Shown here one piece after another: positions 38,480-51,064 of a stretch of 64,000 bases of DNA. The position numbers and the translations under genes were made by a program. Positions within the stretch are counted from its first letter, which is position 1, and each line of letters begins with the position of its first letter. The DNA is from Pradoshia sp. D12 (GTDB lineage: Bacteria; Bacillota; Bacilli; Bacillales; Pradoshiaceae). The DNA lies in assembly GCF_008935075.1 (NCBI RefSeq), contig NZ_CP044545.1, positions 2,135,501 through 2,199,500 of the forward strand, written 5' to 3'. The notes under the pieces are model-generated. The model searched no databases and was not told the origin of the DNA. It was given only the letters and a program-made list of their open reading frames with translations.

Positions 38480-38929
38480 ATGATTATCGATCAGTTATCA
38501 AATGCTCCATTATATGATGGAGTGCATCCTAGATTAAAGAAAGCCTTCGCTTTTTTAATGGAAAATGATTTGCAAGCCTTGCCGGTAGGAAAGTATGAAA
38601 TTGAAAATGACAAGGTCTTCGTAATGATTCAAGAGTATGAAACAAAGCTCATTGAAGACTGTCGCCTGGAAGCTCATTACTCATATACGGATATCCAATA
38701 CGTCATTAAAGGCGAGGAAAGAATGGTTTATATAAATAAGGAAGATACAGAAGTCGTAGAGGAACAAAAAGAAAATGATGTTATGTTCTTGAATGGCGAG
38801 GGTAATCATCTTATCGTGAAAGAAGGATGTTTTGCTGTGTTTATGCCCCAAGATGCTCATATGCCAGGTGTTTGTGTGCAACAACCGCAAACTGTAAAAA
38901 AAGCAGTAGTAAAAGTATTGTGTGATTAA
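38480..38929 (+). CDS. YhcH/YjgK/YiaL family protein
   Basis: This 149-residue protein belongs to the YhcH/YjgK/YiaL family of cupin-fold proteins, which includes the sialic acid anomerase NanQ/YhcH and EbgC. Family features are HYSYTDIQYVIKGEERM and the late FAVFMPQDAHMPG, whose His and Glu residues bind a metal. It probably acts on a sugar or sugar acid, but which one is not evident because it is isolated from other sugar genes. GGAGG precedes the ATG at 38480; the frame extends upstream without a start signal. A palindromic operator lies upstream and a terminator immediately follows. Confidence 0.85.
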   Translation: MIIDQLSNAPLYDGVHPRLKKAFAFLMENDLQALPVGKYEIENDKVFVMIQEYETKLIEDCRLEAHYSYTDIQYVIKGEERMVYINKEDTEVVEEQKENDVMFLNGEGNHLIVKEGCFAVFMPQDAHMPGVCVQQPQTVKKAVVKVLCD

Positions 38930-38933
38930 TGGA

Positions 38934-38964
38934 AGAGGCAAAATCAATTCATGATTTTGCCTCT
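38934..38964 (+). terminator. terminator of the yhcH gene
   Basis: AGAGGCAAAATCA (38934-38946) pairs perfectly with TGATTTTGCCTCT (38952-38964). An open frame that runs through it into the following transposase remnant is accidental. Confidence 0.85.
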
Positions 38965-38965
38965 C

Positions 38966-39300
38966 TTAATCTTTGTCGTGATTGCGGAAAGTTTTTCAAC
39001 GACCTAACTAACACTCCTATATCTGGCACTCGTTATCTTGGAAAGTGGTCTACTTTCTTTCATTTAATAGTTGAGGGTTACACCTTGCCGAAGATTGCCA
39101 AAAGACTAAAAATCCATTTGTCTACCGCATTTTACTGGCGACATAAGGTGCTTTTTGCCCTTCGTTCATTGGGATTTCAAACTTTAAAAGGAATTATCGA
39201 AAGCGATGAGACCTTTTTCAAAGAGTCTTTCAAAGGCCGAGAAGTAATTGATAGAAAGGCTAAGAAGCGTGGAGGTAGAGATGAACCAGCCTCAAACATA
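38966..39300 (+). pseudogene. IS1595-family transposase fragment
   Basis: The frame encodes LCRDCGKFFNDLTNTPISGT, then KWSTFFHLIVEGYTLPKIAK and IESDETFFKESFKGR, which is typical of IS1595-type transposases with a zinc ribbon and a DDE-like domain. The first half of the zinc ribbon and everything after RGGRDEPASNI are missing, so it is truncated at both ends and cannot be active. Downstream, 39301-39674 holds no gene; it has repeated TGTCCCACTGC motifs (near 39340 and 39535) that are probably further insertion debris. Confidence 0.8.
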
Positions 39301-39674
39301 TTTCTACAAGTAGGGGGTGAACAGTTTAGCGGACGGGATCATTTGTCCCACTGCCCCTTACGTTCTACCCTGGCTACTGATAGATTAAATTCAAATGAAA
39401 AAAGTTCAACCAGAAAGTTCTGGCTGAACTATATAATACGAACCTGCCCCTTTACTTCAACAAGATATTCAACCACAAAAAAGCATTAATCTTTCTAGGA
39501 TGAACGCCACTGTTTAATAATTTGGGATCTAACCTGTCCCACTGCTCGGGCAGGAATCGCCCGTCTTTCACTGCCATCCTGTCTTTGTATAATCAACATT
39601 GATATATAAAAGATCCTTATTTATAAATTTCTAGCAGCGTCTTTTATAGCCAAATCTCCGAGGAATGAATTTGT

Positions 39675-41763: not shown

Positions 41764-42915
41764 TTGAGATTATTTAAAGAAAAATTAGCTTGGGCTGCTC
41801 CTATTGCAGTAATTTTAATTATTGCGTTATTCTCATTAAATTTATTTGCTCAAGGTAACCCACAAGTAAGAAATTTACCAGTTGCACTTATAGTAAATGA
41901 TGAAGGCGTACATGTAGATGCCGTGAAATCGGCAGTTGAACAAATGAGTAAAGGCACTGACGGCGAAGAACCAATGTTAGCTTTTACAAATGAAAAAGAA
42001 GAAGATATTGAAGATTTATTTGATGATAAACAGTATTATGCTGCATTAGTCATTCCTGAAGGTTATAATGATACATTGCAAAATGCGCTGACTAACAACT
42101 CTCCAGCAACTTTACAGGTATATATTAACCAAGGTTATAACATAACTGGTGCGAACTATGCTAAGACTGCTTTAACTGCTTTAATTACCCAATTAAACAA
42201 CCAATATTCTTCAAATTTTATTGCGCAAATGGACGGTCAACAAATCGAGGCTAACAAGGCAGCTGTACTTGTGAATCCGATTGTTTCTGAAGAAAAAGTA
42301 TTCAATGCCGTTACAGCCTCAACTGCAAACGGAAGTGCTCCAACCTTAATGGCAGTTCCTGCTTGGGTAGGTGCGTTAATCGGTGGTTTCATAGTATTTT
42401 TAGCTTCTTCAAACATTTTGAAAAAAGAATTATTAACTCGGAAACAAGCGTTACACCTAATGGGAGGTCAAGCATTATTCGGCATAATTATTGCCCTATT
42501 CTCTGGTTTTACCGTTGCAACGCTTGGTTTAATCGCTGGTATTAATATGCCTAGCTACTTCTTGGTTGGTTCGTTCGTATCGTTTGCAGCCTTCTGTTTC
42601 TTTTTATTAGTCTCCGGAGTAACTGCATGGATCGGTAAACCAGCCATTACCTTATTCATGGTTGTAATGCTGTTAGGTATGGGTGTTTTAATGACACCAC
42701 AAGAAATGCTTCCTGATTTCTTTGTAAACTTCATTCGTCCATGGGTTCCTATCCGATTTGCCTCTGAAGGTTTACGTGAAATCTTCTATTTCGGTAGCGG
42801 CTTCTATACTGGCCAATCATTCAACACCATTTTAGGAATTGGTATTGCAGGTTTAGTGATGTATGTTCTGTCTATTTTTAAACCAGTACGTGCACAAAAA
42901 ACTAAAGCTAAATAA
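41764..42915 (+). CDS. YhgE/Pip-type membrane protein (ABC-2-like exporter)
   Basis: This 383-residue protein has an N-terminal membrane segment (about 10-28), an extracytoplasmic domain of about 170 residues (NLPVALIVNDEGVHVDAVKS, LVIPEGYND) and five or six membrane segments in the C-terminal half. This layout is that of the YhgE/Pip and ABC-2 permease group of efflux-type proteins. The TTG start has AAAGGAAG seven bases upstream. It is divergent from a TetR gene, which suggests inducible efflux of a toxic compound; no ATPase partner is adjacent. Substrate unknown. Confidence 0.78.
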   Translation: MRLFKEKLAWAAPIAVILIIALFSLNLFAQGNPQVRNLPVALIVNDEGVHVDAVKSAVEQMSKGTDGEEPMLAFTNEKEEDIEDLFDDKQYYAALVIPEGYNDTLQNALTNNSPATLQVYINQGYNITGANYAKTALTALITQLNNQYSSNFIAQMDGQQIEANKAAVLVNPIVSEEKVFNAVTASTANGSAPTLMAVPAWVGALIGGFIVFLASSNILKKELLTRKQALHLMGGQALFGIIIALFSGFTVATLGLIAGINMPSYFLVGSFVSFAAFCFFLLVSGVTAWIGKPAITLFMVVMLLGMGVLMTPQEMLPDFFVNFIRPWVPIRFASEGLREIFYFGSGFYTGQSFNTILGIGIAGLVMYVLSIFKPVRAQKTKAK

Positions 42916-43050
42916 GTGTATTTATATTGATGTGCTCTGACAACATTCTGAATATTCGACTTCAGTCAATCCAACTAGATCTGTCCTTTTAAGTGCCTTA
43001 TACTACTTAAGCATGAATAGAAACAGGTACATCAGTAGATTTAAAATCAA

Positions 43051-43094
43051 AGCCGTTAGAATTTTACTCGTCGTAAAACTCTAACGGCTTTTTT
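43051..43094 (+). terminator. terminator downstream of the YhgE-type gene
   Basis: AGCCGTTAGA...TTTTAC pairs with GTAAAA...TCTAACGGCT across 43051-43089, with T6 following. It is about 135 bases after the stop codon of the YhgE-type gene. The rest of 42916-43443 has no gene I can support. Confidence 0.8.
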
Positions 43095-43443
43095 GTATAT
43101 TCGTAGATTTGTCCCAGTCTCTTTCGATTCCGTACCTATTCATGATTTTTACGTTTCACAGGAATCTATTTAAATGAGGTTTTTATTTAATTGGATGTGA
43201 TTCTAATTATTCTAATTTTGGTTTTCTCCTAAACTGTATACTTCTTGAAATTTCCCAAAAGCAAAACAATCCTATCCTTTATATAAGATATACACCGTCA
43301 CCCCGATGGTGTATTAAGTGTAAGTATCAGTTTATATTAAAATAAAAGTTAAATGTTTCTCTGCTTTATTTAAATCTCAGTCCATGCAAGCTGCCTTTTA
43401 TAGTCAACTTTGTATACCTGAACTGCATTTAATAAACCTCATC

Positions 43444-46400
43444 TTATTTCATTTGATTTTTATACTCTTCAATTTTAATAGCATCTCTAAAATACTCTTT
43501 CCAATATAATCCATATCTATCTTTAGCTTCTCTTATACAACTATGGAAGCTGCTATTTTGCAACTTTAATTTTATAACGAAAGGACCAGAATCCTGTGTT
43601 TCTATGAGCTCAAAAAACTTTAGAATATCAATAATTTCTTGGTAAGGTAATGCATTTATATCCGTACCATCTAGATTAGTTTTGAATATACTTGCAGGAG
43701 TTAATTTGCATTCTTTACTTTTAGTAAGAACATCAAATATATTAAAAAATTTATCGCTCAGTAACATATTTAAGGGCGCAACTTCCTTTTCATTTAAATA
43801 CTGAATAAATCTATAGGCTGGATTCGATTTTTCTAAATTTAATTTACTTTTTATTTCTTCAACATCCATTCCTTCTAATTTATATAGAAAACTTTGGATT
43901 TCTTTAATACTTATATTATCTTTATGCACAAAGTTTATCTTTTCTATCTCACCTTTTAACAAAGGTGGTACTCGAATATCATCTAAAAGCACACAGACAA
44001 AAGGTTTTTCTTTTTCTATACAATATTCTACTTCCTCCATTACCCATTTGAAATTTTCAGCTACATTTCTTGAATAAAACACTATTACTATGTCACTTTC
44101 ATCAATTTTTTTAGTTATTTCTCCTATTATAGATTTTCCCGGAATGAATTCATGAGTATCTAAAAGTGCTTTATGCTTTTTTTCATTACTTTCTATTAAG
44201 TTTATATAGGGAGTTATTCTTCCTTTATCTTTAGTTGAGTGACTAATAAAAAACTTCATCATTCTTTTCTCATCTCCCTTTTTATTTTCTAAGTAGTCAT
44301 TAAAACTTAGTATAGATAATCTTGATCGAGGATTTTTCTTAGTGAGTTTTTCAATAATACTCAGTAACTCATAAAAGACTTCTTGTATAGGAGATTTTAG
44401 TATAATATCTTTACTATAGACTTCTTTAAATGCGTCACTATTATTCTTCCATACTCTCTTTGGATTAAACTGTAATGAGATAGAATTTAAACTATTAATT
44501 TTATCCATTTCTTTAAGGAAGAGACTAAAAGCAATTAGGCCTATTCTAAAAGATATCTTTAATTCATTTTTGATATGCTGTCTATCAAAAAATTCTTCTG
44601 GAGCACTCAAATATAAGCTTCTATCTTTTACTGGGTTTGGATTTAATCTAACCTCCATATCATGGTAAATAGAAGTTTTTATCCATAAATTTTTGGAGTT
44701 TACGAAAGTAGGATTATTCATATATTGATTATTATTCTTAATTAAGGTAATAACCTTTTTTAAGAAAATATAGATATCTTTCACACTATTAAATGTAGCA
44801 TGTAAGCTATGTAGTGTGAAAAATCCTTCACTTGGTTCCAAAACTGCTTCCTGGACATTCTTTGCAATCAGTAGCTTATATAATTCCTGATATTCTCTTC
44901 TCAAAAAATTAAAAAAAGCTATATGCATCTTCTCATTTGAATTCTCAAACTGTTCTAGTAATGATGAATCTTTTAAAAAGGCATCTACTATAAATTGGCC
45001 ACAATTACTTGTTTCATAAATGTTTTTTTCTATAATTTTATCAATGATTGCTGACTTGAACCGTGTTGAGAAGCCTATTCCTTTTGCACCTGTACTCCTT
45101 GACATATGATATATAATAGAATTAATTAGATAAGGATTTGTTCTCTCTAACCTATTAAAACATTTATTAATAACTGTAGTTAAAATAAATATTTCTACCT
45201 TTTGAGATTTTGAGGTATTTAATAAATATAATTCAACAATACCCGTATCACTGGGAATCACCTTACCCAATTCATCTCGAAGTTTGATATTCCAATTGTG
45301 CAAATTTGCTATTGCCGCACCAACATAGATTTCATAAGGACGATCTAAATAGATACTATTAATACTAACTACATTGAGGTTCTTTTCTTTAAATCTATAG
45401 TTGAAAAGCTTTTCTAATAAATAGGTTACTTTTTCAGGTTTTGTATCCATTTGTGATACCAATAAAGGAAAGGATGCGGGATCACCTTTTCTAATTAAAT
45501 TATTAGCTGCAAAATTAACCTTCCTCTTTCTTAATTTTTCAAGTTCCTTGAAATCTCCTTTAGCTTGCGGAATCTTTTCATTTTTAGTTATTTCATCTTT
45601 ATATTGCTGAAGTAACTTATACAACTCTTCGTCAGATTCATCTTGTAGCGGTGACAACTTCTCTTTTTGCTCTTTTCTAAACTCTTCTAATTCTTCATCA
45701 TCTTCAACTTTATATACTTTTGTTTTACCAGCATTTATTTCTAGACCTAATTCCCATAAATGAGCCTGCAAATATAATAGACTTTTCTCTACTTCTTGTT
45801 TAGTCTTCCCCAAAATCCTTATATCATCTACATAACGAATATAATTAAATTTCGTAAATTCTTTCATGTTATGATCTAAATCATTTAAATATAAATTACT
45901 TAAAAAATAGGCCAAAGCCCCTCCTTGGGGAATACCTTTATCTGACTTTTTTCTATTACCTTTTAGTGAATAAAAGCTTTTTAAATAGGTTGGAATTAGT
46001 ATTCTTATGATATAAGAGTAAGTTTCATCTTTGAGATGTCGTTTTAACATACTCATTAGAATGTCATGGTCAATATGATCAAAATAAGAAACAAGGTCTG
46101 TCTCACATACCCATCTATTCCCTGCTTGTATTTTATAAATAGTTTGATTTAAAAATTTATTGTACTGTTTAAAATAAGGTATGAATGTTGCAGCAGAGAA
46201 TTTTGTTTTTTTCTTGGAATCCTGTTAGCACAACTCCAATAGTAAAATTTAGTGTCTAATTTTCTTCCTATAAAATTCAAGATTGCATGCGACACTATTT
46301 GATCTTCGATTTCCATAAAAGAGTTTTTTCTTAATAACCCATTATTTTTAGGCATTAAAAAAATTTGCTTATTAGAAAACCTATACTGGTTATTCTTCAA

Positions 46401-46556
46401 TCTATGATAAAGATCCAATATTATTTGATCGATATAAGTATCATAAAAACTCATCTCTGAATGTATTTTAAACTTTGTTACATCTTGGACTATAGCGTTT
46501 CTACATCTCATCCAAGCAATATATAACTCCTCTTTACCAAATGGATCTTTAATCAT
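43444..46556 (-). CDS. reverse transcriptase-TIR fusion protein (frame interrupted at an A7 run)
   Basis: Read with one frame correction, the product is about 1037 residues. The reverse transcriptase domain covers about residues 1-290: motif LVSYFDHIDHD, GIPQGG (208-213) and the catalytic YVDD (242-245). A long helical region (about 300-765) without known motifs follows, then a TIR domain (about 767-897) with KFFISHSTKDK and a Trp followed four residues later by a Glu (Glu842), the usual NADase glutamate, and a helical tail. The first part (46149-46556) and the rest (up to 46205) are in different frames; they join by a -1 shift or one added base at the A7 run at 46206-46212. The helical region recalls the alpha-repeat of UG/Abi-type reverse transcriptases. 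The start ATG at 46556 has GAGAG eight bases upstream. The retron VTG motif was not found. Confidence 0.75.
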
Positions 46557-47052
46557 TAAACAAACTCTCTCTTTCAAAAAAATATAATCTCATTTCACTT
46601 ACCAAGCTTTCTGTATGTAATCAAGTACATTTAATACTCTAGCAACATAAATTCCCCATACTTTAAGTATAGTTGTTTTACAATTAATGTATATTCAACC
46701 ACACAATAGTTTTCTACTCACTATTACCAACATACGCCTATTTATTGTGACTAATTTATACTATATCACTAACTTTTATTCTTTCTGTATTGCTTTATAT
46801 AGTATGATTGAGAGCTTAAATAATTATTAATAAAAACGACACACTATCAATTTTTAAAATGACGACCTCTCCCAGTAACCTCACTTACTTATGTTACGAT
46901 TCACCATGGTTATTTAAGAGTCAAAAAAGACGTTGGTAATTCACCCATACCTGCTGGCAACAGATGAATCAATAAAATCCTTCCGCTAAACTTTACAGTT
47001 ATTTCATTTTTAAAAATCTTGTTCGATTTAGTAATGATAACTAATAAATGTT
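46557..47052. other. AT-rich 496-base intergenic stretch before the RT-TIR gene
   Basis: No supported gene. It contains short perfect stems, for example ATACTT-A-AAGTAT and AATAGT-N9-ACTATT on the minus strand, and could hold a non-coding RNA. I did not find the long a1/a2 complementarity that marks retron msr-msd RNAs. Confidence 0.4.
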
Positions 47053-47775
47053 TTATGCACTCTGGATTCCCCATTTCTCAATATTAATGTCAAATTCTGT
47101 TGCAACCTGTTCTGTAAAGAATTTATTCAGTTTTTCAAAATCATTTTTTAGTTGTTCATAATGAAGGTAGCTTTCTTGTAGTTCACCTATTGGTTTCATA
47201 TAAAAAGTTTCTTCATCACTTTTTTCTATGTATGTATACCAACGTCGATAGTTACTTTGGTGCGTAGTCAAGAAATTGTTTAATTCTTTTATGATTTCAT
47301 TAGACAAATCATATAGATTAGTCTCTTTGCTTACTTTATTACTTTTTCTTTTTTTTGCATCCCCTAGTATCTTAATTTCATCTCTTACAAACTTATATAC
47401 TTCAAAATAAGAATCTAGTGTTTCCTTTATATTGTCATGTTCAAAATCCACCTTAAATAACGTTCGTTTTGTATCTAAGAACGTACGTAACTGCCTTTTA
47501 AACAATTGGTTTGGATTATCAAATAAAACATTAAATCCACCAATGGTTAATTTCTCAACACGAAAAGCCCATTTTTTAAGACCTATGAATACCATCAGGA
47601 GGGTTATAAAGATTAAGGGTATTAACGTGAATAGGGTAGTAGAAATAAAATTTAAATTTCGCCACAACGTATTTACATAATGAACTTGTATTTTTTGTAT
47701 ATCAACTATACTAAGAAAAACTATTAATCCACCGATAAGCAATGTTATGATTGACCATTTCGCTATTTTCTTCAT
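47053..47775 (-). CDS. two-membrane-segment protein, possible effector of the TIR module
   Basis: This 240-residue protein has two N-terminal membrane segments (about residues 5-22 and 45-66) and a mainly helical cytoplasmic part of about 170 residues, with LTIGGFNVLFDNPNQLFKRQ right after the membrane part. I recognise no enzymatic motif and no Macro or SLOG domain. GAGGTGG precedes the ATG at 47775. It starts 56 bases after the TIR gene in the same orientation, so the pair is probably an operon. By analogy with type II Thoeris and CBASS, a membrane protein next to a TIR enzyme may be the death effector; this is inference. Confidence 0.6.
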   Translation of the reverse strand: MKKIAKWSIITLLIGGLIVFLSIVDIQKIQVHYVNTLWRNLNFISTTLFTLIPLIFITLLMVFIGLKKWAFRVEKLTIGGFNVLFDNPNQLFKRQLRTFLDTKRTLFKVDFEHDNIKETLDSYFEVYKFVRDEIKILGDAKKRKSNKVSKETNLYDLSNEIIKELNNFLTTHQSNYRRWYTYIEKSDEETFYMKPIGELQESYLHYEQLKNDFEKLNKFFTEQVATEFDINIEKWGIQSA

Positions 47776-47831
47776 AATTCCACCTCGCATCCAAAGACAC
47801 CCATTTTCTCCATATATTAAATCAAAGAATA

Positions 47832-48674
47832 TTAGTTGTTAGTACTATTTATATATCTTTTTAATGAAGGAAGTATCTCTTTTGCTATTTTTTCTAGATT
47901 CTCATCTTTACGATGTAAATATTTAATGTCATCAAATAGAAAGTCTATTTTATCTATATCAACATCCTGATGAACTACAGCTATCGTTAATAAATTTTTT
48001 TTAGATGCATATCTACTTGAAAATTTAGTCAACTCCAAATCACACCAATTAGAGTTAATAAAGTCGTTAGTAATCCAAAAAATTACTCCTGCAGATTGTT
48101 TTATTCCTTTTTGAATTGCTTTAACAATTGATTCTCCATAATCAATATTAACTTTATCAAACCAAACAGGTAATCCTGCTCCATTTAAGTAAGGAATCAA
48201 ATCCTCGACTTCACTTTTATTTTTAGAAGAATGACTCAAGAATATAGGCATCTGATTTCCAAGTGGTTTATCTATTACATAACCCATCTTTTCTAATTCA
48301 CTTTTTTCATAATATCGGAAAAGTAATTCACTGTTCATCGCTTCTAATACATCGATGTCTCTTACTAAAGTTTGACTATTAAACCTTCTATAGCCTATTT
48401 CTTGACTTAATTCATTAAATGTAATATCCGGACGATAACGTAAACCTGCAGCCCTCATCATATTTTTCATTACCTCAATATGTCCTTCTTTTGGATTTTC
48501 ATAACTTACTACAATGAAAAATTCTAAATTATATGGAATCGAGTTAGTCATAAGATTTACCATTTGAAGAGAAGTTGCATCTTGATTTTTTAATAATTCC
48601 ATTAGTACCGGTACTAATGGTTTTCTTACACCATAATCACATTCCCACACATAATCTTTGTCTAATTTCACCAT
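47832..48674 (-). CDS. TIR-domain protein with unknown N-terminal domain
   Basis: This 280-residue protein has a C-terminal TIR domain (about residues 143-273) with IFLSHSSKNKSEVEDL, the loop PVWFDKVNIDYGES and SNWCDLELTKF, in which Trp210 and Glu214 correspond to the NADase active-site pair. The N-terminal 140 residues (WECDYGVRKPLVPVLMELLK) do not match a domain I know. The chosen ATG at 48674 has AAGGGAG seven bases upstream. It is the first gene of a probable operon with the two-membrane-segment protein and lies in an AT-rich island with an RT-TIR fusion, so a role in phage defence is likely but not shown. Confidence 0.75.
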   Translation of the reverse strand: MVKLDKDYVWECDYGVRKPLVPVLMELLKNQDATSLQMVNLMTNSIPYNLEFFIVVSYENPKEGHIEVMKNMMRAAGLRYRPDITFNELSQEIGYRRFNSQTLVRDIDVLEAMNSELLFRYYEKSELEKMGYVIDKPLGNQMPIFLSHSSKNKSEVEDLIPYLNGAGLPVWFDKVNIDYGESIVKAIQKGIKQSAGVIFWITNDFINSNWCDLELTKFSSRYASKKNLLTIAVVHQDVDIDKIDFLFDDIKYLHRKDENLEKIAKEILPSLKRYINSTNN

Positions 48675-49150
48675 TTTCACACTCCCTTATGGAAAATTCT
48701 ATCATTTTTAAATACTTACTATCATATTATCACGTTTAGAAATTATTTTAGTTACATATTTCTGTTTTTTTCTGCTTCGAATTCCTATTACTACAAATAT
48801 TTTTAGTTTTGCTTATACATTTGTATTATTTAAAATAAAAAAGAGTAAGAACTTTTGTCCTTTCTCTTTTGGAATGTATTTGTTTGTTGTTTTTTAATTT
48901 CCTCAATTCTTCTATTAGAATTATAAGTTCTAATTTCTTGTTGACCATCACTCCCGCACCCGTTATAGCGGCAGTTTTTATCTTTTACATCTATCTTAAA
49001 TTATTATCAAAAAATCTTTTTTGCTTATTTTTTCATCAAACTTTTGTTTTTCTTCCAGACCTCTTTAATTTTCTGCAGCCAAATGTTTAAAGGTGGCAAA
49101 GATTCATTTACTTGAATGTCACCTTCCAAAATAGATTTTTTATTATAATT
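48675..49150. other. 476-base stretch with possible gene remnant
   Basis: On the minus strand after the flavin oxidoreductase stop, a frame reads ILEGDIQVNESLPPLNIWLQ and continues to KKNKSLMKK before a stop near 49004. It has no start or ribosome binding site and looks like the tail of a lost gene. I see no complete gene here. Confidence 0.35.
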
Positions 49151-51064
49151 CTACAAATTTAAGACTGCATCATATGCTTCGTGTACCGCATCGAGTACTT
49201 TTCTAACCTTCACGCTATCACCAACGTTAACAATATTCGTTTTATTTTTTAAAGAGTGATATAGATGATTGTTAGGCGAAAATCCTGCTGCTACCACAAC
49301 GCTATCACAATCATTCCATTCTTTATTGCCGTTTACCTCAATTTCTACGGCTTGATCTAGTACTTCTGTTACTTTAGCAGATGTTTTAAACGTGATATTT
49401 GGGTGCTGCAAAAGCTGGTTTAACATCATTGCATTTTGTATAAATAAAGGTTCAGGTAACATTTTTTCAGCCATTTCGATAATAGTGATCTGCATTCCTT
49501 TATTTGCAAGCACAACTGCGGTTTCACAGCCGACTAGCCCGCCGCCAATAACCGATATCTTTTTTCCAAGAAGAGCTTGATTTTGCAGAACGTCTGTTGC
49601 TGTGTAAACATGGCTCTTATTCAGTCCCTTGATTGCACTTGGCATTATAGGATTGCCACCGGTAGCATGAACCACCAAATCTGCTTTATAGGATAATATC
49701 GCTTCTTCCGTTGCCTCTTTACAATACCTAATCGAGATATTTAACCGGTCAAGTTTTGTCCGATAATAATCGAGAATTTTCATTCCATCCCGCTTAAACG
49801 GAGGCATACAGGCATTATGAAAGTTCCCTCCTAGATAGGCTTTTTTCTCCCATATTTCCACATCATGACCTGCTTCTGCAGCTGTTATGGCAGCTTGACA
49901 GCCGCCAGGACCAGCACCTATCACTAGAACCCGCTTCGATTCATCTGCTGCTTTCAATTCTTTCAATCCCTCATAGCCCGTAAGAGGATTGACGGCGCAG
50001 TTTATGCTCTTACCAGCAGCAACGGTAGCAATACAGCCTTCATTACAATAAATGCAATGTCTGATTTCGTCCGTTCTATTTTCCATCACTTTCTTTGGAA
50101 AATTTGGGTCTGCCAAAAACTCTCTTCCAACTCCCGCGATATCAATCCAACCATTTCGAAGTGCAGCTTCAGCCTTTTCAATGTCACCCAGGCGCCCATT
50201 TGAAAGAACTGGCAAAGACGTGACAGCCTTAATTTTAGCAGATGAAATCATTTGTGGAACCATATCCTGCTGGTAAATAGGCGGCATTGCTATGTACCAA
50301 TTATCATGACAGCCAGCGTCAACATGTAATGCATGGACACCCTTGCTTTCTAATAGTTTGGCAATCTCTATTCCTTCTTCAATTCCCCTGTACCCTTCTT
50401 CTACTGGCAAGAAATGATCCGGGGTAAATTTAACAAGGAGAGGGAAGTCACTTCCAAGGTCTTCCTTGATGACATCGATTATTTCTGTTAAAAATCTCAT
50501 CCTGTTTTCAAAGCTTCCGCCATATTCATCCTGGCGGATATTCCATCGTTTAGTCATGAATTTATCTGTCAGGTACCCGCCATAAGCATGGATTTCAATG
50601 GCGTCTGCTCCTGCTCTCTTCGCTAATTTTACTGTTCTCGAGATTTCACCTTGTATAAACTTAATTTCATCAATCGTCAATTCTTCAAAGGTTATATTAG
50701 CACCGGGATACAATGGTAAAGCTGATGCTGAAGCAGGCTTTAGCCTGCCCTCTCCTATACCACCTAATCCAATTCCGGGCACCACTTGAAGGCAGATTTT
50801 ACAATCAAATTCATGGGCCCTATCCACTAGCTCTTTAAAGCCTGCAAAACTTTCTTCTGTCAATGTGGATGCAGGGGTATGGCCATCGATAGCTTCTGTT
50901 GCAATAACGGTTGTCATCACCATCGATGCTCCGCCCTTTGCTCTGGTAACATAGTAATCTACTGTTCTTGGATCAAAATTTCCGAGTTCTGCTCCCATTG
51001 GAACCATAACAAATCTGTTTTTCAGTTCCAAATTTCCGACTTTAATAGGTTCTAATACCAACAT
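49151..51064 (-). CDS. NADH:flavin oxidoreductase / 2,4-dienoyl-CoA reductase-like enzyme
   Basis: This 637-residue protein has an N-terminal old-yellow-enzyme TIM barrel (about 1-340) that binds FMN, an iron-sulphur cluster motif (CIYCNEGC then C in SINCAVNP), and a C-terminal FAD/NAD-binding part (VLVIGAGPGG near 380; ISVIGGGLVG near 520). This is the architecture of 2,4-dienoyl-CoA reductase, enoate reductase and BaiCD-type enzymes, which reduce conjugated C=C bonds. The substrate is not known from context. GAGGTGG precedes the ATG. It lies between the defence island and the galactoside locus. Confidence 0.88.
   Translation of the reverse strand: MLVLEPIKVGNLELKNRFVMVPMGAELGNFDPRTVDYYVTRAKGGASMVMTTVIATEAIDGHTPASTLTEESFAGFKELVDRAHEFDCKICLQVVPGIGLGGIGEGRLKPASASALPLYPGANITFEELTIDEIKFIQGEISRTVKLAKRAGADAIEIHAYGGYLTDKFMTKRWNIRQDEYGGSFENRMRFLTEIIDVIKEDLGSDFPLLVKFTPDHFLPVEEGYRGIEEGIEIAKLLESKGVHALHVDAGCHDNWYIAMPPIYQQDMVPQMISSAKIKAVTSLPVLSNGRLGDIEKAEAALRNGWIDIAGVGREFLADPNFPKKVMENRTDEIRHCIYCNEGCIATVAAGKSINCAVNPLTGYEGLKELKAADESKRVLVIGAGPGGCQAAITAAEAGHDVEIWEKKAYLGGNFHNACMPPFKRDGMKILDYYRTKLDRLNISIRYCKEATEEAILSYKADLVVHATGGNPIMPSAIKGLNKSHVYTATDVLQNQALLGKKISVIGGGLVGCETAVVLANKGMQITIIEMAEKMLPEPLFIQNAMMLNQLLQHPNITFKTSAKVTEVLDQAVEIEVNGNKEWNDCDSVVVAAGFSPNNHLYHSLKNKTNIVNVGDSVKVRKVLDAVHEAYDAVLNL

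What the first reader, a model, noticed from the sequence alone, without database searches (positions are those of the whole stretch)
43444..46556. Reverse transcriptase fused to a TIR domain through a long helical region
RT motifs (GIPQGG, YVDD), about 465 residues of helical sequence and a TIR domain with the Trp-x3-Glu pair occur in one protein. UG/Abi reverse transcriptases such as AbiA have RT-alpha-repeat-HEPN order; here a TIR NADase would replace HEPN. This would be an abortive infection system in which reverse transcription gates NAD depletion. I could not match it to a named DRT or retron type.
Basis: partly seen in the sequence, partly recalled or inferred. Interest (0 to 1): 0.88.

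Follow-up and report, generated by a model that had tools for sequence, protein, structure and literature searches.

The report
Split reverse transcriptase–TIR defence gene
A bacterial gene joins a reverse transcriptase of the phage-defence type to a TIR domain (an NAD-destroying 'suicide' enzyme in many immune systems) in one protein, a combination I could not find in about 80 relatives or any held family model, but its reading frame is interrupted once, so it may be switched off or need frameshifting to work.

Summary
On the minus strand, 46556..43444, one gene of about 1,038 codons encodes complete RT motifs (DLVSYFD, GIPQGG, YVDD), a long all-helical region and a TIR domain (Pfam TIR_2 50.7 bits, cut-off 28) with W671/E675 in the W-x3-E position, then about 155 residues of unknown fold. 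The frame breaks once, inside the RT, at or near a run of seven A (46206-46212). The RT scores best against UG19, UG21 and UG34 of the UG/Abi (DRT) family, but far below true UG19/UG21 members, and a tree puts it on one long branch outside both clades. UG19 relatives have the order RT-helical/HEAT-HEPN-like (R-x4-H); none of 81 relatives' C-termini has a TIR. The predicted RT+helical part resembles class 1 Abi polymerases. So a TIR standing where AbiA/UG19 carry HEPN is supported as architecture; NAD depletion gated by DNA synthesis is inference. The gene is an orphan: no second RT-helical-TIR protein was found, so conservation cannot vouch for the fusion or decide whether the frame break is mutation, sequencing error or programmed. 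It is not the known retron-TIR (type XII). It lies in a 28% G+C accessory island with a second TIR gene.

The parts
43444..46556 (-). RT-helical-TIR gene, about 1,038 codons in two overlapping frames; ATG at 46556, TAA at 43444
46149..46556 (-). Upstream frame: RT fingers (KNNGLLRKNSFMEIEDQIVSHAI), homologous to UG19/UG21 N-terminus
   Evidence: PADLOC UG19 E 3e-17, UG21 1.8e-11 on this part alone
46206..46212 (-). Run of seven A in the 78-base stretch (46149-46226) where both frames are open; likely site of the frame change (-1 relative)
45640..46224 (-). Downstream frame, RT palm/thumb: motif A DLVSYFD (46098), GIPQGG (45936), YVDD (45834), LGLEINAGKTKV
   Evidence: RVT_1; model pLDDT above 90 over most of the palm; PDB RT matches Z up to 15
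44320..45640 (-). All-helical region of about 430 residues, resembling the alpha-helical repeat domain of class 1 Abi polymerases; low-to-moderate model confidence
43921..44259 (-). TIR domain; W671 (44046-44044) and E675 (44034-44032) of the 870-aa frame in the W-x3-E position
   Evidence: Pfam TIR_2/TIR/ThsB_TIR; beta-alpha model matching TIR structures Z 11-13; Glu aligned with three other bacterial TIRs
43447..43920 (-). C-terminal extension of about 155 residues, no family match
47832..48680 (-). Neighbour in the same low-GC island: second TIR gene (282 aa, TIR at 142-266), 33% identical to the RT-TIR's TIR; probably a separate system
47053..47790 (-). Neighbour: 245-aa predicted membrane protein (by eye), 42 bases after the second TIR gene; probably its operon partner

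Best explanation
It is a phage-defence gene of the UG/Abi (defence-associated reverse transcriptase) kind, of an unassigned lineage next to UG19 and UG21, in which a TIR domain occupies the C-terminal position that holds a HEPN-like domain in UG19 and AbiA. Most likely working (inferred): the RT plus helical domain forms an oligomer that makes protein-primed, untemplated DNA; infection changes the oligomer or its DNA; this brings TIR domains together, they hydrolyse NAD+, and the infected cell stops growing. Shown: the domains, their order, intact RT and TIR catalytic residues, the kinship of the RT, accessory-island location. Inferred: oligomerisation, untemplated synthesis, NADase activity, gating and defence. 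In the sequenced strain the frame is split once, so full-length protein is made only if the ribosome or polymerase slips, or if the break is a sequencing error; otherwise the copy is off.
For: Domains at curated cut-offs. The frame-joined RT+helical part scores UG19 199 bits (profile 5-523 of 562), UG21 190, UG34 157. The tree places it in the UG19/UG21 assemblage against group II/Cas1-type RTs (100/99) but outside UG19 (98/94) and UG21 (100/99). UG19 relatives end in a HEPN-like RNRVxHP motif and 0 of 81 relatives' C-termini match TIR. Among PDB entries that align well beyond the palm (to model residue 378-492) are class 1 Abi polymerases: DRT6, Abi-P2, AbiK, DRT4/UG15; AbiA is among Foldseek's hits. 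TIR model matches SPARTA TIR-APAZ, AbTir, TIR-STING, RUN1. Class 1 UG/Abi RTs make protein-primed template-free DNA (PMC13275509, PMC11077055). Island G+C 28% against 36% for the window, and different genes at this place in both same-genus genomes.
Against: No second RT-helical-TIR protein: not in 80 relatives from 84,980 species genomes, 387 order and 398 phylum genomes by UG19 profile, nor in the places found in plasmids, phages or viral contigs. The frame is split. Helical part: no sequence-level match to the UG19 helical profile, model confidence 30-80 and rmsd 7-10 A to class 1 structures. In AbiA the corresponding C-terminal domain is enzymatically inactive (PMC11077055).
Confidence: 0.5

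Rival explanations
1. Decaying gene: a once-functional RT-TIR defence gene inactivated by a homopolymer indel; nothing full-length is made in this strain.
For: One frame break in the RT fingers-palm region, no recognisable stimulatory structure after the A-run (z +0.7), orphan status.
Against: Only one lesion in about 1,038 codons, all catalytic residues intact, no other stop. A7 is a slippery and indel-prone tract, so programmed slippage, phase variation or sequencing error are all open.
Confidence: 0.35
2. The TIR is not a toxin but a structural or signalling module: it oligomerises the RT (as HEPN does in AbiA) or makes a cyclic ADP-ribose signal for another effector, possibly the neighbouring TIR/membrane pair.
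For: AbiA HEPN is inactive yet needed for dimerisation and polymerase activity (PMC11077055); a second TIR gene and a membrane protein lie upstream.
Against: The TIR keeps W and Glu at the catalytic position; the neighbours end 476 bases upstream with no sign of co-transcription.
Confidence: 0.2
3. It is a retron-TIR (RT-TIR type XII) with a long insert.
For: Both fuse RT and TIR.
Against: NCBIfam NF042941 (464 positions) does not match at E 0.1 although it matches the neighbouring TIR gene; RT scores are UG, the TIR is about 525 residues after YVDD instead of directly after the RT; no Rfam match around the gene.
Confidence: 0.03

Closest known systems
UG19 RTs (PADLOC RT_UG19)
   Same: RT fingers and palm, helical/HEAT region, C-terminal effector-like domain; best-scoring group (199 bits)
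   Different: True members score 430-585 bits, are 690-810 aa and end in a HEPN-like R-x4-H domain; none has TIR; tree excludes this RT from their clade
UG21 RTs (PADLOC RT_UG21)
   Same: Second-best score (190 bits), RT plus HEAT repeats
   Different: Member L023 scores 528 bits; 630-680 aa, no effector domain found; tree excludes this RT
AbiA, Lactococcus (PDB 8oz7)
   Same: RT, helical domain, C-terminal accessory domain in the same order; structural match
   Different: HEPN instead of TIR, about 600 aa, HEPN catalytically inactive (PMC11077055)
Retron-TIR, type XII (NCBIfam NF042941, PADLOC RT-TIR_XII)
   Same: RT and TIR in one protein
   Different: 464 aa, retron RT, no helical repeat region; no match to this protein
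DRT4/UG15, DRT6, Abi-P2, AbiK
   Same: RT plus alpha-helical repeat shape; align with the model past the palm
   Different: No fused TIR

Membership tests
Class 1 UG/Abi (DRT) reverse transcriptases | RT fold with intact motif A Asp and YxDD | tested here: met
Class 1 UG/Abi (DRT) reverse transcriptases | C-terminal alpha-helical repeat domain | tested here: inconclusive
   All-helical in the model; DRT6 Z 13.4 (291 aligned, rmsd 7.9), Abi-P2 12.7 (280, 7.6), AbiK 11.9 (333, 9.6), DRT4 11.8 (326, 7.2); but pLDDT 30-80 and no profile match in sequence
Class 1 UG/Abi (DRT) reverse transcriptases | Protein-primed template-free DNA synthesis by an oligomer | not testable with these tools
   needs purified protein
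UG19 | Membership score and clade | tested here: not met
   199 bits against 430-585 for members; outside the 37-row clade with 98/94 support
UG19 | C-terminal HEPN-like R-x4-H domain | tested here: not met
   TIR instead
UG21 | Membership score and clade | tested here: not met
   190 bits against 528; outside the 11-row clade, 100/99
UG34 | Membership score | tested here: inconclusive
   157 bits; no reference member could be fetched for comparison
Retron-TIR type XII | Whole-protein match to NF042941 | tested here: not met
   no match at E 0.1
Retron-TIR type XII | Adjacent msr-msd non-coding RNA | tested here: inconclusive
   no Rfam match in 42900-49200; intergenic 46910-47052 folds better than shuffles (z -2.3) but lies 350 bases upstream and is untested
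Group II intron RT | TIGR04416 at its cut-off and maturase domain | tested here: not met
   82 bits against 300; no maturase domain
TIR domain | Fold and family match | tested here: met
TIR NADases | Catalytic Glu four residues after Trp; NAD hydrolysis | tested here: inconclusive
   Glu675 aligned and conserved in three other TIRs; activity not testable here

The most novel reading that the evidence does not exclude
A new DRT group, sister to UG19/UG21, in which untemplated DNA synthesis directly switches on a fused TIR NADase, with expression controlled by -1 slippage at the A7 run.
Probability: 0.12. Interest if true: 0.85.

Novelty: new variant of a known kind. Interest (0 to 1): 0.55.

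Why it matters
What the DNA made by class 1 Abi polymerases does is an open question (stated for Abi RTs in PMC12632851 and PMC13275509). A natural fusion of such an RT to a TIR, whose output (NAD+ loss) is easy to measure, would give a direct read-out of when and how the polymerase signals. If the TIR merely oligomerises, as HEPN does in AbiA, that would be informative too. Its worth is limited by there being one copy with a split frame.

Tried and rejected
Single-protein pattern scans of genome contigs and viral contigs with the 870-aa frame gave no relative; an alignment query did. Order-wide protein search found only group II intron-type RTs among the hits read: L002-L004 are 500-aa maturases. 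A TIR pair alignment gave no confirmed viral TIR. Long-ORF UG19 hits L027 and L037 turned out to be methyltransferase-RT fusions, L035 a primase-like fusion (readings by eye). Programmed frameshift: the downstream 100 bases do not fold better than shuffles, so no support beyond the A7 run itself. ncRNA: no Rfam match. Boundary repeats of the island: longest shared word 11 bases of low complexity. Literature: the UG/Abi census (Mestre et al. 2022, known from memory) is not held, so I could not check whether one of its 42 groups lists a TIR fusion; searches of the held library found none, and the word TIR is absent from the AbiA, DRT9, DRT10 and DRT3 papers.

Full report
What is there. The minus strand of 46556..43444 carries an open frame of 926 codons (46224..43444) and, upstream, a second frame (46577..46149) that overlaps it. 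The upstream part alone matches the N-terminal 100 positions of the PADLOC UG19 and UG21 RT models, and the downstream part matches from motif A onwards; both sides of the junction align with UG19/UG21 relatives. The frame must change inside 46226..46149, where a run of seven A sits at 46206-46212. The change is -1 relative to the upstream frame. In frame the A-run reads A AAA AAA, which is both a slippery and an indel-prone sequence; no stimulatory fold was seen after it. I therefore leave open mutation, phase variation, sequencing error and programmed slippage. The other long genes of the window looked intact, which argues mildly against pervasive sequencing error.

Domains. RVT_1, TIR_2, TIR and ThsB_TIR exceed Pfam's cut-offs. 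Motifs: DLVSYFD, GIPQGG, YVDD; W671 and E675 in the 870-aa frame. E675 aligns with the Glu of two other Bacillota TIRs and of the neighbouring TIR gene; phmmer aligns the same stretch with the plant TIR protein Roq1, whose Glu at this position is catalytic (own knowledge). A model of the TIR part has low confidence (mean pLDDT 50) but the beta-alpha order of a TIR, with Z 11-13 to TIR structures, among them TIR-APAZ of SPARTA, AbTir, TIR-STING and RUN1; nucleoside deoxyribosyltransferases, a related fold, score alike. After the TIR come about 155 residues without any family match. The 430 or so residues between RT and TIR are predicted almost entirely helical.

Kinship. The frame-joined protein up to the TIR scores UG19 199 bits, UG21 190, UG34 157, UG32 129. 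Members score far higher (UG19 430-585; UG21 528, same call). An alignment-based scan of 84,980 species genomes returned 80 relatives. On trees of the RT domain the window's RT is a single long branch (1.7-1.9 changes per site) in the UG19/UG21 assemblage, outside UG19 (98/94) and outside UG21 (100/99); its exact sister is unresolved. References for the other UG groups could not be added, so 'between UG19 and UG21' is a local statement.

Architecture of relatives. UG19 relatives carry a HEAT/helical region and end with a motif such as RNRVDHP, R-x4-H, as in HEPN domains; the HEPN naming is mine, from the motif, since no Pfam HEPN model matched. UG21 relatives are RT plus HEAT. None of 81 C-termini matches a TIR. 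In the Foldseek/VIA comparison, the structures that match the palm include all kinds of RT, but those that go on far into the helical region are mainly DRT6, Abi-P2, AbiK, DRT4/UG15. The rmsd there is 7-10 A and the model confidence moderate, and a sequence profile of the relatives' helical part does not match; the alpha-repeat assignment is likely, not proven.

Context. G+C is 28% for this gene and 29% for its two upstream neighbours against 36% for the window and 37-41% for flanking genes. The tetR-permease pair downstream is conserved in both same-genus genomes, but other genes stand next to it there. The gene is single-copy. A second TIR gene and a membrane-protein gene lie upstream; they look like their own operon. 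The 476-base gap before the RT gene and lack of any RNA family make a shared system unproven. All this fits an acquired defence island.

How it may work. Class 1 Abi polymerases oligomerise and make protein-primed, template-free DNA (PMC13275509, PMC11077055). TIR domains become NADases when brought into contact (established for SPARTA, TIR-STING and others; own knowledge). The simplest joining of the two: phage infection alters the RT oligomer or its DNA, TIRs meet, NAD+ falls, the cell stops. Each of these steps is untested here. The AbiA precedent warns that a C-terminal domain with a perfect catalytic motif can be inactive and serve dimerisation.

Verdict. Real domain fusion as read from the sequence, an unassigned UG/Abi lineage, not a member of UG19, UG21 or retron-TIR by the tests run; a new variant of a known kind. 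Held back by the single example and the split frame.

Noticed in passing
window 47832-48680 and 47053-47790 (-): Second TIR gene (N-terminal 140 aa of unknown family) 42 bases before a small membrane-protein gene: a likely two-gene defence operon; no homolog of the TIR gene at E 1e-10 in 140 genomes of the order.
   Followed up: partly
window 44259-44300 (-): GGGAG followed 11 bases later by ATGATG exactly at the start of the TIR domain: a possible internal start that would make a free TIR protein.
   Followed up: no
window 46910-47052 (-): Intergenic stretch upstream of the RT gene folds better than shuffles (z -2.3); a long hairpin that could be the end of the upstream operon or an RNA.
   Followed up: no
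L027 610-3405 and L037 754-3405: Fusions of a methyltransferase-like N-terminus to a UG-type RT with helical repeats, next to genes resembling radical-SAM proteins, in two Bacillota genomes.
   Followed up: no
window 38929-39489 (+): Remnant of an IS transposase with a garbled C-terminus near the island.
   Followed up: no
L060-L066, L069: UG19-like RTs of cyanobacteria and others with RNRVxHP C-termini, about 760-810 aa, a uniform subgroup longer than other UG19 (690-730 aa).
   Followed up: partly
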